Source of the DNA: an uncultured Bacteroidales bacterium
GTDB taxonomy: Bacteria > Bacteroidota > Bacteroidia > Bacteroidales > UBA932
Length of the DNA: 64,000 nucleotides
Assembly: GCA_947168065.1 (NCBI GenBank)
Contig: CAMVKH010000002.1
Location: 124,001 to 188,000 of the forward strand
Direction: 5' to 3'
A program made the position numbers and the translations under genes. The stretch's first letter is position 1; each line of letters starts with the position of its first letter. A model generated the notes under the pieces. The model made no database searches. It was not told the DNA's origin and saw only the letters and a program-made list of their open reading frames with translations. This document shows, piece by piece, positions 31,544-37,806 of the stretch.

Positions 31544-32830
31544 TTATCGGAAGAGCTTTTCTATTTTTTCGACGATGCCAGGGTCGGAGGCGTTGCCGAT
31601 CAGGCTGGGTTTCAGGTAGTGGCATTTGTGCTCGCGCTGGAAGCGGGCCTGACCGCCGCCGGTGACGTTGAGCAGGGCCACGCTATCGCGCGGCAGCTTG
31701 CCGGCTTCGAAGGCGTTGATCATGCCCTGGAGCGCCACGGCTGCGGCGGGATGGATGTCGATGCCTTCGGTATCGAGAAAGAGTTGCTGCATGGCGGCGA
31801 TGTCGGCGTTGGTGGCGCATTCGATGTCGCCGCCCGCGTCACACAGGGCATCGTAAACGCCGCCCTTTACGCTGTAGGGCGGCCGCCGGTTCGAGAGTAC
31901 CTTGGCATCGATCTCAAGGGCCTGCAAGCGGGCCTTTTCGTCGTCCATGGGCAGCAGCGCGCGGCTGCCGGCCTTCCAGGCGTCGTACATGGGCAGGAAA
32001 GGCACGTTCTGCGAGGGAAAGAGCTTCATCTTGTGGCTGCCGAAACGCCCGTCTTCGATCAGGCGGAGATTGGCCTCCCACGCGGCGATGGTGCCGGTGC
32101 CGGAGCCGATGGCCTGGAAATAGGCCTCGGGGATGCGCTGCAGAACCTTGGCGGCAGACAGCACGGTGGTGGCCATGCCGTCGCGGCGGGCGACGTTCTT
32201 GGCGCCGCCTTCTGCGAAGAAGCGCGGCGAACTGCAGGCCGCGTCGCCCAGGGCGATGGCGTCGAAGTAGTCGGTGCCGCGTGGCGAACAGACGAGTTTC
32301 ACGCAGTCGTTCAGGGGTTTTTCAAACCAGAGCGCGTCGATGTTCTCTTCCGGCACGCTGAGCAGCAGCGGGATATTGTTCTCCGAACAGACCTTGGCAA
32401 AGGCCCGGGCCGTGTTGCCGGCCGAGGCCACCACCAGTACGCGCTTCTCTCCGTCGGGGATCCGGGCGCACACGCTGTAGGCTTCCGTTTCCTTGAAGGA
32501 GCAGGTGCTCATGGCCGCGCCGATTTCGGGCCACCAGCCCGAGAAGGCGATGTGCAGGTTCGGGAGTTTCAGCCTGGCGGCGAGTTTCTCGCTGCGATAG
32601 GTAATGGTCGGTGCGGAACCCTTCAGCATCCGCCGTACCGGCATCCAGTCGGCAAACTGGTAGATGCCCCGGGTTTCGGGGCCGAAGGCAAGCTGTTTTT
32701 TCGCATAGATGGCCCGTACCAGCGAAGGCTCCTGGCACTGCGGGTCTGCCAGCGTCCAGCCGGCATCCTCGAAGCACCGGCCGGTGGCCACGGTCTCCAG
32801 CACGTATTTCGTGGGTTCAAATCCGTTCAT
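31544..32830 (-). CDS. Cysteate synthase-like PLP enzyme (threonine-synthase superfamily)
   Basis: 428 aa. PLP-Lys motif CSFKETEAYSVCARI, VVASAGNTARAFAKVC, AIGSGTGTIAAWEANLRL. N-terminus TKYVLETVATGRCFEDAGWTLADPQCQEPSLVRA. ATGA overlap with the upstream Hdr-like gene. Confidence 0.65.
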   Translation of the reverse strand: MNGFEPTKYVLETVATGRCFEDAGWTLADPQCQEPSLVRAIYAKKQLAFGPETRGIYQFADWMPVRRMLKGSAPTITYRSEKLAARLKLPNLHIAFSGWWPEIGAAMSTCSFKETEAYSVCARIPDGEKRVLVVASAGNTARAFAKVCSENNIPLLLSVPEENIDALWFEKPLNDCVKLVCSPRGTDYFDAIALGDAACSSPRFFAEGGAKNVARRDGMATTVLSAAKVLQRIPEAYFQAIGSGTGTIAAWEANLRLIEDGRFGSHKMKLFPSQNVPFLPMYDAWKAGSRALLPMDDEKARLQALEIDAKVLSNRRPPYSVKGGVYDALCDAGGDIECATNADIAAMQQLFLDTEGIDIHPAAAVALQGMINAFEAGKLPRDSVALLNVTGGGQARFQREHKCHYLKPSLIGNASDPGIVEKIEKLFR

Positions 32831-34659
32831 TTCGTATCGTTTTTGTTTGTTTCCAGGTTGAGGACGAGCATTTCGGCGAAGTCCCTGACGGGGACGGGGG
32901 CGAAGCGGCCGAAAGTCTTGAGACAGAGGGGGCAGGCGGTGACGATCTGTTCGGGGTTGTTGGCCGTCAGATTCTCGATGGAACCACGCGTGATGGGTTC
33001 GCGGTCTTCGTAGCGCAGCGTCAGCGAGCCCACCGAACCGCCGCAGCAGACGCTTTCCTCCCTTTCTTTGAGGGCCGGCACCAGCTGGCCGACGGCGGCA
33101 AGGGCCTGACGCGGTGCGTCGTAGATGCCGCAGCCGCGGCCCAGGTCGCAGGGGTCGTGGTAGACCAGGGTCTCGTGGCTGTTTTTCAGGGAAAGCCTGC
33201 CCGCTGCGATGAGGCGGTTGAAATACTCGGTATAGTGCACGACCTCCACGCCGATCAGCTCGTATTGCTCCTTGAAGATGCGGTAGCAGATGGCACAGCT
33301 GACGAGCAGGATCTGGGCGCCGCTCTTTTCGATGAGCTGGCGGTTCTTCTCGATCAGCTGCTGGGCCTCGTCCCGGCGTCCTGCCAGGAGGAGCGGGCGG
33401 CCGCAGCAGATGCTGCCGTCCCTGTCCATCAGCTCGAAAGGCACGCCTGCCGCCTGCAGGACCTGCTGCACCGAACGGGAAATCACCGGGGTGAGCGAAC
33501 TCATGCAGCCGGCGTAGTACAGCACTTTCTCTTCTCCGACCTGCTGCGGGGCGATGGCGTTGAGGTAACTAAAATCGGCGGGAAGCCGGTTGTTCTTCTT
33601 TTCCTGCGCCGTGCGGTAGGCGAGGCGGATGCCGCAGGCGTCCATCTGCACCTGGCAGAGCGATGCGCATTTGCCGCACATCAGGCATTTTTCCGCAATC
33701 TCCAGTGACCGCTGCTGGTTGCGCCGCTTGAGGTTGCGCACCATGTAGACCGTCGCATCCTGGACATTCTTCTTCTGCACGCCCATCGGGCACGCGTCGA
33801 TGCAGACGCCGCAGCTCGGGCAGGAATAGAGCATCGCCAGCGTGAAGCCCTTGCGCGTGTGGCGTACCGGCAGTCCGGCGTTGCGCATGGGAATCAGCAG
33901 GATTTCTGCAGGGATGTGCATGTAGCGCGTGAAGGGAAGGACTGTCATGAACGTACCCAATGCCAGCGAATAGGCCCACCAGGCCACCGTGATGTTTTCG
34001 GGTTTGCTCATGAAGTTGTGCAGAATCCAGTTGATCGGGATGGTCATGAAGCTGCCGCCGGCCACGCCCGCGGTGAAGCCCTCGGCGATCCAGCGCAGCG
34101 GGAAGATGGCCCAGAGGCTGTAGAGCCCGATGAGGTCGGTCAGGGTGAGCTTGGTGGTGCGTCGCATGCCCACGATGCGCGAACGGAAGCGCTTGATGAT
34201 GGCCAGGGTGATGCCGCTCAGGATGATGAGCAGGAAAAAGTCCATCAGGAAGAAGAAGAACGAACCCTGCAGGGTCTGCTTCTGCTCTTCCATGAAAAAG
34301 CGGAAGAAGATGGGGTAGTAGAGTTTATGCAGCCGCTCCGGGATGTAGAGAACGGTCTCGATGTGGCCGATGACGATGATCATGAACCAGCCGAAGGCGA
34401 TGCTGGAATGCATGTAGCCCAGCACCTTGTTGCGCTTCCATAACTTCACGTGGAGGAGGCAGTCGCAGAACAGGTCGCGGAGGTTCTTCAGGATGGCAGA
34501 AGGCGTGATCAGCGAGAGCGCGAACTTCCTGCGGTCAGCAGGGGAGAGCTGCACCAGGACCTTGAACAGCGCCAGCAGGCAGTAGCCTATCACGAAGGTG
34601 ATGCCGAAGACAAACGGCAGGACGAAGGGGTCGTAAGCGGCGAGGATGCGTTCCTTCAT
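32827..34659 (-). CDS. Membrane heterodisulfide-reductase-like protein: NarI/HdrE-like TM domain + 2x[4Fe-4S] + two CCG domains (HdrD/DsrK-like)
   Basis: CPSCGVCIDACP and CLMCGKCASLC clusters. CCG1 GCMSS...ICCGRP...SCAIC; CCG2 DPCDLGRGCG...VCCGGS...CPLC. N-terminal multi-TM. Start reassigned to 34659. Confidence 0.88.
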   Translation of the reverse strand: MKERILAAYDPFVLPFVFGITFVIGYCLLALFKVLVQLSPADRRKFALSLITPSAILKNLRDLFCDCLLHVKLWKRNKVLGYMHSSIAFGWFMIIVIGHIETVLYIPERLHKLYYPIFFRFFMEEQKQTLQGSFFFFLMDFFLLIILSGITLAIIKRFRSRIVGMRRTTKLTLTDLIGLYSLWAIFPLRWIAEGFTAGVAGGSFMTIPINWILHNFMSKPENITVAWWAYSLALGTFMTVLPFTRYMHIPAEILLIPMRNAGLPVRHTRKGFTLAMLYSCPSCGVCIDACPMGVQKKNVQDATVYMVRNLKRRNQQRSLEIAEKCLMCGKCASLCQVQMDACGIRLAYRTAQEKKNNRLPADFSYLNAIAPQQVGEEKVLYYAGCMSSLTPVISRSVQQVLQAAGVPFELMDRDGSICCGRPLLLAGRRDEAQQLIEKNRQLIEKSGAQILLVSCAICYRIFKEQYELIGVEVVHYTEYFNRLIAAGRLSLKNSHETLVYHDPCDLGRGCGIYDAPRQALAAVGQLVPALKEREESVCCGGSVGSLTLRYEDREPITRGSIENLTANNPEQIVTACPLCLKTFGRFAPVPVRDFAEMLVLNLETNKNDTK

Positions 34660-37097: not shown

Positions 37098-37104
37098 ACG
37101 CTAG

Positions 37105-37806
37105 TCATTCCTGGGGGTTGAGGTGGCAGGAACTGCTCTGGTTGAAGGCCTGCGCTTCGTATTCCTCCATCGAAAGACCCATCTCGGCGGCCTTCTCGCG
37201 GGATTTTTCCTCCACGATATCCATCCAGCGGGTGGCGCCGGTCAGGTCGAAGATGGCTTTGAGCTCGTCGAGCGACTCCTGGGGAATCCGGCGCAGCGCG
37301 CCGGGACCGACCTGGCCGAGGTGGGCGCCGAGGCGCTCGTACACGTCCTCCATGTGCTCCTGGGTCCATTGTCCCACCGTGCCGTATTCGGGGTGCTTTT
37401 CGTACAGGAAGGTTTTGGGGTAGACGCAATAACCGTAGTCGAGGATGTTGCGCTGCAGGGCATGCATGAGCGGGAGCATCTGCCGGCCCTTCTCGCTTTC
37501 CACGAAGCAGCCCAGTTCGATGGACAGGGCGCGCAAGGCCATGATGACGAGCCCCGGCGCGTTTTTGCGCGGGCAGCGTGTCACGCAGGACAGGCACTCG
37601 CCGCAGTACCAGATTACGTCGCTCTTGAGGAGTTCGGTGATGGCGTTGTCGTCGCGGCTCTGGACGATCGTGACGATTTTCTTCGGATTGTAGCGGTAAA
37701 ACTCCGCGGCGGGGCAGATGGCCGTGCAGGTGCCGCAACTGATGCAGGCTTTGAGTCCTTCCTTGATGCGGTAGTCCTGTGCGAGGCGCTCGTAGATTCT
37801 TCCCAT
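37105..37806 (-). CDS. HdrC-like 4Fe-4S dicluster protein
   Basis: CISCGTCTAICPAAEF and CGECLSCVTRCPRKN; 233 aa. Confidence 0.87.
   Translation of the reverse strand: MGRIYERLAQDYRIKEGLKACISCGTCTAICPAAEFYRYNPKKIVTIVQSRDDNAITELLKSDVIWYCGECLSCVTRCPRKNAPGLVIMALRALSIELGCFVESEKGRQMLPLMHALQRNILDYGYCVYPKTFLYEKHPEYGTVGQWTQEHMEDVYERLGAHLGQVGPGALRRIPQESLDELKAIFDLTGATRWMDIVEEKSREKAAEMGLSMEEYEAQAFNQSSSCHLNPQE

What the first reader, a model, noticed from the sequence alone, without database searches (positions are those of the whole stretch)
31544..37806. Hdr-like operon (C-B-A-C2-membrane/CCG) translationally coupled to a probable cysteate synthase in a non-methanogen
Seen: five contiguous minus-strand genes encode HdrC, HdrB, HdrA, a second HdrC, and a protein fusing NarI/HdrE-like TM helices, two [4Fe-4S] clusters and two CCG domains. 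ATGA overlaps occur at 35006-35009, 34656-34659 and 32827-32830, the last coupling to the PLP enzyme. Known: the sulfur-oxidiser sHdr system typically has order sHdrC1-B1-A-hyp-C2-B2 with a short HdrA lacking ferredoxin domains. It is implicated in sulfane-sulfur oxidation to sulfite. Cysteate synthase uses sulfite and O-phosphoserine. Inference: this may be an undescribed module that makes or channels sulfite into cysteate, with a membrane quinone-linked terminal subunit replacing B2.
Basis: partly seen in the sequence, partly recalled or inferred. Interest (0 to 1): 0.85.

Follow-up and report, generated by a model that had tools for sequence, protein, structure and literature searches.

The report
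Hdr module feeding sulfonolipid synthesis
Gut and rumen Bacteroidales carry a menaquinone-linked relative of heterodisulfide reductase next to their sulfonolipid genes, and genome comparison indicates that it makes the sulfite for those lipids in species that cannot make sulfite from sulfate.

Summary
In detail: C1-B-A-C2-(membrane+2[4Fe-4S]+2CCG)-PLP enzyme, with three ATGA overlaps. The PLP enzyme is a true cysteate synthase (TIGR03844 above cut-off; full-length match to PDB 9k3c). The pair is conserved: of 60 genomes of the window's family, 25 have the membrane subunit, and in 20 of these cysteate synthase is the next gene. The link is to the whole sulfonolipid pathway. In many relatives the module sits inside VOC-CFAT-KCR-C1-B-A-C2-DE-CS clusters, and a second, distant clade of the module is linked to CFAT plus an unrelated-type synthase. 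Across 198 order-level genomes the membrane subunit nearly always occurs with CFAT (64/68; p=1e-6). Among CFAT+ genomes it is concentrated in those lacking CysD/CysH (19/25 versus 45/121; p=6e-4). In eight other sulfonolipid clusters, CysH (sometimes CysDN, symporter, CysQ) takes the place of Hdr. Best reading: an anaerobic, quinone-linked, assimilatory sulfite generator. It resembles sHdr but is not a member: no LbpA, no 'hyp', HdrA outside the sHdr clade. Direction, donor and product are inferred, not shown. I found no such linkage in the papers searched.

The parts
37105..37806 (-). HdrC1-like subunit, 233 aa, two [4Fe-4S] motifs (eight invariant Cys)
   Evidence: NF041779 84.9 bits, Fer4_8; Cys conservation in 66 sequences
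36027..37097 (-). HdrB-like subunit, 356 aa: complete C-terminal CCG site (C181,C221,C222,C261,C264); degenerate N-terminal site (C28,C62,C100 with conserved Ser103 in place of the bridging Cys)
   Evidence: NF041780 128 bits, CCG; AF2 model matches HdrB 5odc, TM 0.82 by target; motif map
35006..36025 (-). Short HdrA flavoprotein, 339 aa, no ferredoxin domains; invariant C155,C168,C172,C173
34656..35009 (-). HdrC2-like small ferredoxin, 117 aa, two [4Fe-4S] motifs; ATGA overlaps with A and with DE
   Evidence: TIGR03290 38.9 bits; sequence; conservation
32827..34659 (-). DE: fused membrane subunit, 610 aa. TM domain with invariant His70, His84, His248; two [4Fe-4S]; two complete five-Cys CCG sites
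   Evidence: AF2 pLDDT 85; top PDB fold match EtfD 9ojn, TM 0.74 by query
31544..32830 (-). Cysteate synthase (CS), 428 aa, PLP fold type II; ATGA overlap with DE
   Evidence: TIGR03844 449 bits > 324.9; PDB 9k3c E 3.6e-178 over 1-427
37897..39081 (+). Divergent PatB-family C-S lyase, a possible but unproven supplier of reduced sulfur; next to the module only in the window's genus
   Evidence: TIGR04350 420.6 bits > 340; conserved in L192-L196; the C-S lyases at L257/L260/L268 are only 30% identical

Best explanation
The six genes form one operon that makes sulfite inside an anaerobic cell and turns it into L-cysteate, the head group of sulfonolipids (capnine, sulfobacins). The Hdr-like complex (C1-B-A-C2) with its membrane partner DE oxidises a reduced or sulfane sulfur (sulfide or a persulfide such as R-S-SH) at non-cubane [4Fe-4S] sites to sulfite. 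Electrons pass through the Fe-S chain and heme b of DE to menaquinone, then presumably to fumarate. Cysteate synthase combines the sulfite with O-phosphoserine; CFAT and KCR then build the lipid. The module does the job that CysDN/CysH (sulfate to sulfite) does in relatives that can assimilate sulfate. Shown by computation: gene content, order, coupling, motifs, fold, co-occurrence and replacement. Inferred: substrate, direction of electron flow, product, complex formation.
For: (1) CS directly follows DE in 20/25 DE+ genomes of the family and in 46/76 named loci. (2) Larger clusters VOC-CFAT-KCR-C1-B-A-C2-DE-CS (L243, L245, L247, L253, L257, L260, L268; nearly complete in L254, L264); in L258 the module stays while a different PLP enzyme (CS') replaces CS. 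CFAT is secure: PDB 28eh cysteate-C-fatty acyltransferase, E 3e-161, versus SPT E 9e-68. (3) A distant clade of the module (f77, f38, f101, plus G240) is linked to CFAT and CS' in other gene orders; G134 has DE followed by CFAT. (4) DE tracks CFAT: family 24/25 versus 8/35 (p=7e-9); order 64/68 versus 82/130 (p=1e-6); one genome per family p=9e-4. (5) Among CFAT+ genomes, 19/25 without CysD/H have DE but only 45/121 with it (p=6e-4; p=2e-4 at one per family); without both CFAT and CysD/H only 1/23, the incomplete own genome. (6) In eight sulfonolipid loci (L272-L277, L284, L287) CysH lies in the cluster, with CysD, CysN, a sulfate symporter and CysQ in up to three; seven of these genomes lack DE; CysH/D/N/Q were absent from all 160 Hdr or CS loci. 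(7) DE keeps the bridging Cys of both CCG sites, which EtfD lost when it became a non-catalytic wire to menaquinone (PMC13083937).
Against: No biochemistry. No LbpA and usually no TusA, so the sulfur carrier known from sHdr is missing. Fourteen CFAT+ genomes in the two samples lack both DE and a strong CysD/H hit or CysDH pair (order: G003, G030, G052, G143, G178, G191; family: genera g164 and g168, G251, and G223 whose hit is in an 890-aa frame), so another sulfite source must exist. Forty-five CFAT+ genomes have both systems; G019 and G039 have DE without CFAT. DE does not track CS itself across the order (p=0.14). HdrB has one intact CCG site. No adjacency in most copies outside the family. 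Some genomes are incomplete MAGs.
Confidence: 0.65

Rival explanations
1. General thiol/disulfide:menaquinone oxidoreductase (HdrDE-like) used for redox balance or energy. Sulfite is not its product, and its place in sulfonolipid clusters reflects shared regulation.
For: Most copies outside the window's family stand alone; G019 and G039 have it without CFAT; 45 CFAT+ genomes have it besides CysD/H; two full CCG sites in DE resemble HdrD.
Against: Does not explain near-confinement to CFAT+ genomes, enrichment where CysD/H is missing, or exchange with CysH in the clusters.
Confidence: 0.18
2. EtfD-like electron wire: DE passes electrons from flavoproteins, e.g. of acyl-chain metabolism, to menaquinone; the link to lipid genes reflects acyl-chain redox chemistry.
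For: Closest solved fold is EtfD; the partners are lipid genes.
Against: Bridging Cys kept in both CCG sites, lost in EtfD; no Etf genes recognised near the operon in the loci examined; does not explain the relation to CysD/H.
Confidence: 0.05
3. The module runs in reverse, using menaquinol to reduce sulfite or a disulfide, e.g. to limit free sulfite near cysteate synthase.
For: Hdr complexes are reversible in principle; direction cannot be read from sequence.
Against: A sulfite consumer should not be most frequent where the sulfite-making pathway is absent; no sulfite reductase family was recognised among the neighbours annotated.
Confidence: 0.07
4. True member of the sHdr family brought in by horizontal transfer.
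For: Same leading order C1-B-A-C2, short HdrA, full-length match to 6tjr.
Against: No LbpA, no hyp, no soluble B2; HdrA outside sHdr and closer to methanogen HdrA.
Confidence: 0.05

Closest known systems
sHdr, sulfur-oxidising Hdr-like complex (hdrC1B1A-hyp-hdrC2B2 + lbpA; PMC6067878)
   Same: Leading order C1-B-A, then C2 and a two-CCG protein; short HdrA; proposed product sulfite
   Different: B2 replaced by a membrane fusion DE; no hyp, no LbpA; HdrA outside the sHdr clade; tied to a biosynthetic pathway, not to lithotrophy
HdrDE of methanogens / DsrMK-type membrane complexes
   Same: NarI/HdrE-like TM domain, two [4Fe-4S], two CCG sites with all five Cys
   Different: One polypeptide, N-terminal TM domain, in one operon with a complete HdrABC-like set
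Mycobacterial EtfD (PDB 9ojn, PMC13083937)
   Same: Same architecture and best fold match; solved path from Fe-S clusters through heme b to menaquinone
   Different: EtfD lost both bridging Cys (non-catalytic); DE keeps them; no ETF genes found nearby
Soluble HdrABC (5odc, 8rvu)
   Same: A, B and C homologues; HdrB fold, TM 0.82 by target
   Different: HdrA lacks the ferredoxin domains; HdrB has one intact site; no hydrogenase or formate dehydrogenase partner recognised nearby
Sulfonolipid pathway: CS, CFAT/SulA/CapB, KCR/CapC (PMC10191378, PMC11211663)
   Same: Cysteate synthase in the window and CFAT/KCR in relatives' clusters are homologues of the characterised enzymes
   Different: Published reports held here name no sulfite source and no Hdr partner

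Membership tests
sHdr | Gene order hdrC1B1A-hyp-hdrC2B2 | tested here: not met
   C1-B-A-C2 present; hyp absent; soluble B2 absent, DE in its place
sHdr | Associated lipoate-binding protein LbpA (universal in sHdr loci, PMC6067878) | tested here: not met
   GcvH-like family: one copy in nearly every family genome, with or without DE, on a different contig from DE in the window's genome
sHdr | Short HdrA without ferredoxin domains | tested here: met
   339 aa, matches 6tjr over 5-328
sHdr | HdrA groups with sHdrA | tested here: not met
   Mean identity 34% to sHdrA, 40% to methanogen HdrA; Bacteroidales HdrA form a separate group (few references)
sHdr | Oxidises sulfane sulfur to sulfite | not testable with these tools
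   needs biochemistry
Cysteate synthase (TIGR03844) | Curated cut-off 324.9 bits | tested here: met
   449.1 bits
Cysteate synthase (TIGR03844) | Full-length relation to a solved cysteate synthase, including the Lys region | tested here: met
   9k3c, 1-427 versus 1-429, 596 bits
Cysteate synthase (TIGR03844) | Activity: O-phosphoserine + sulfite to cysteate | not testable with these tools
   needs biochemistry
EtfD | Bridging Cys of both CCG sites lost (non-catalytic) | tested here: not met
   C458 and C579 invariant in 74 sequences
HdrD-type catalytic CCG protein | Two five-Cys CCG sites | tested here: met
   C385/418/419/455/458 and C504/538/539/576/579
QmoABC / DsrMK / LdhH / GlpC | Curated NCBIfam cut-offs | tested here: not met
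   QmoC 44.5 of 300, DsrK 42.8 of 400, LdhH 96.3 of 800, GlpC 62.5 of 278 bits at best

The most novel reading that the evidence does not exclude
A dedicated, oxygen-independent sulfite-making complex for biosynthesis: an Hdr-type, menaquinone-linked enzyme oxidises sulfide or persulfide to sulfite to make sulfonolipids in gut and rumen Bacteroidales. It works without LbpA and is interchangeable in evolution with the sulfate-to-sulfite pathway.
Probability: 0.6. Interest if true: 0.88.

Novelty: new variant of a known kind. Interest (0 to 1): 0.8.

Why it matters
Sulfonolipids are bioactive, immunomodulatory lipids of gut bacteria, and the source of sulfite for them in anaerobes is not stated in the papers read here. 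This would be a biosynthetic use of an Hdr-type sulfur oxidation system, would tie sulfide or cysteine catabolism to lipid signalling through menaquinone, and gives a direct genetic and isotope test in a cultured relative (isolate An289).

Tried and rejected
DE was absent from the other 299 genomes of a phylum sample, which held mostly other orders of the class, and full-length DE from the plasmid collection. Association of DE with CS alone across the order: not significant (p=0.14); CFAT is the right partner. The C-S lyase as a conserved partner: rejected beyond the window's genus, the copies elsewhere being only 30% identical. TusA as carrier: in 5 of 25 DE+ genomes only. LbpA: not found. 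Membership in LdhH, GlpC, Qmo or DsrMK: far below curated cut-offs. Paper searches for heterodisulfide with capnine or cysteate found no report of the link (PMC11129491 mentions both terms without connecting them); Ernst 2021 on sHdrA is not held.
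Full report
OBSERVATION. The window holds, on the minus strand, C1 (37105-37806), B (36027-37097), A (35006-36025), C2 (34656-35009), a membrane/CCG fusion here called DE (32827-34659) and a PLP enzyme (31544-32830). NCBIfam and Pfam place C1, B and A with HdrC, HdrB and HdrA, below the curated cut-offs of the methanogen families. 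HdrA lacks the ferredoxin domains and aligns full length with sHdrA 6tjr. The PLP enzyme scores 449 bits against TIGR03844 cysteate synthase (cut-off 324.9) and aligns end to end with the solved cysteate synthase 9k3c (596 bits).

CHEMISTRY WRITTEN IN THE SEQUENCES. In 74 DE sequences all eight cubane-cluster Cys, all ten Cys of two CCG sites and His70/84/248 are invariant. In HdrB of methanogens the last Cys of each CCG motif is the catalytic bridging Cys; EtfD, the closest solved fold to DE (TM 0.74), replaced these residues and is a non-catalytic wire from ETF through Fe-S clusters and heme b to menaquinone (PMC13083937). DE keeps both bridging Cys (C458, C579), so it should be catalytic, like HdrD, while sharing EtfD's layout for reaching menaquinone. 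HdrB keeps one complete site (C181, C221, C222, C261, C264); in its N-terminal site the bridging Cys is Ser103 and the first Cys of CC is Thr61. Its AF2 model matches HdrB 5odc. The presence and type of the metal centres are inferred from these motifs.

CONSERVATION. In 60 genomes of the window's family 25 have DE and 25 have CS; 20 have both and in all 20 CS directly follows DE. A scan of named GTDB genomes gave 80 loci from relatives, including Candidatus Cryptobacteroides, Coprenecus, Merdivivens and Colimorpha and the isolate 'Muribaculum sp. An289'. CS is the next gene in 46 of 76 loci, mostly within 50 nt. Many loci are larger: VOC-CFAT-KCR-C1-B-A-C2-DE-CS. In L258 the same cluster has a different PLP enzyme, CS', instead of CS. 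CS' resembles threonine synthase and scores only about 110-120 bits to TIGR03844; that it makes cysteate is inferred from position. CFAT is secure: PDB 28eh, named cysteate-C-fatty acyltransferase, E 3e-161, against SPT at E 9e-68. KCR is assigned from SDR family and position. A second, distant clade of the module (families f77, f38, f101, plus G240) is also linked to CFAT and CS', in other gene orders. Flanking genes in some loci include SulP, a PF03601 putative sulfate exporter and a MarR regulator.

CO-OCCURRENCE. In 198 genomes of the order DE does not track CS (24 shared, p=0.14) but does track CFAT: 64 of 68 DE+ genomes have CFAT against 82 of 130 DE- (p=1e-6; p=9e-4 with one genome per family; 24/25 versus 8/35 in the family). 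The CFAT+ genomes without TIGR03844 may use CapA-type or CS' enzymes; PMC10191378 reports such a split. Among CFAT+ genomes DE is present in 19 of 25 that lack CysD/CysH (PF01507) and in 45 of 121 that have them (p=6e-4; p=2e-4 at one per family). Among genomes lacking both CysD/H and CFAT it is in 1 of 23, the window's own incomplete genome. The own genome lacks a CFAT hit, but it is 77% complete and two of three same-genus genomes have CFAT.

REPLACEMENT. In eight other sulfonolipid loci CysH lies in the cluster. L277 reads CFAT-VOC-CysH-CysD-CysN-Na+/sulfate symporter-CysQ-CS', the standard route from sulfate to sulfite; L284 and L276 carry the same set, L287 nearly so, L274 CysH plus symporter, and L272, L273 and L275 CysH alone. 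Seven of the eight genomes lack DE; G159 has it elsewhere. CysH, D, N and Q were absent from all 160 Hdr- or CS-containing loci examined. In the loci examined, sulfonolipid clusters thus carry the sulfate-to-sulfite enzymes, the Hdr module, or neither, but not both.

MECHANISM. The most economical reading is that the module is the sulfite source: reduced or sulfane sulfur is oxidised to sulfite at Hdr-type sites, electrons reach menaquinone through DE, and cysteate synthase uses the sulfite with O-phosphoserine. From textbook potentials (own knowledge) sulfite/sulfide lies near -0.12 V and menaquinone near -0.07 V, so the direction is feasible with fumarate as final acceptor. Substrate, direction and product are inferred.

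RELATION TO KNOWN SYSTEMS. sHdr is defined by hdrC1B1A-hyp-hdrC2B2 and by LbpA, which is universal at sHdr loci (PMC6067878). Here hyp and B2 are missing, LbpA is absent, TusA is usually absent, and HdrA is closer to methanogen HdrA than to sHdrA (few reference sequences). So it may work like sHdr but is not a member. I call it a new variant of a known kind, with a new biological role. No paper found here reports the link; subscription journals and preprints are mostly not covered.

LIMITS. Co-occurrence tests used evenly drawn genomes and a one-per-family repeat, not a full species tree. Fourteen CFAT+ genomes in the two samples have neither Hdr nor a clear CysDH, so at least one more sulfite source exists. 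G019 and G039 have DE without CFAT. Some genomes are incomplete. Nothing here measures activity.

Noticed in passing
L277 4562-14551; L284 4136-15721; L276 4343-14916; L272 6441-9922: Sulfonolipid clusters that contain CysH, and in some CysD, CysN, a Na+/sulfate symporter and CysQ: an apparently dedicated sulfate-to-sulfite supply for cysteate, not reported in the papers searched.
   Followed up: yes
L258 between CFAT and KCR; L169:11997-13217; L171:2542-3774; L115:8622-9941: A threonine-synthase-like PLP enzyme with an N-terminal Cys motif (CS') takes the place of cysteate synthase in sulfonolipid clusters: a probable independent cysteate synthase below the TIGR03844 cut-off.
   Followed up: partly
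L121:14011-15090; L169:9716-10786; L243 from 2790: A VOC/glyoxalase-like protein of about 356 aa recurs in sulfonolipid clusters with either the Hdr or the CysH supply; function unknown.
   Followed up: no
L268:12137-13477; L135:5741-7477; L198:12175-13902: Putative sulfate exporter (PF03601) or SulP transporter next to cysteate synthase in several loci; they could move sulfite or sulfate.
   Followed up: no
family genera g164 and g168 (L136-L140): Genomes with CS and CFAT but neither the Hdr module nor CysD/H: another sulfite source must exist there.
   Followed up: no
window 37897-39081: PatB-family C-S lyase divergently transcribed from C1, conserved in the window's genus; could release reduced sulfur from cyst(e)ine.
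   Followed up: partly
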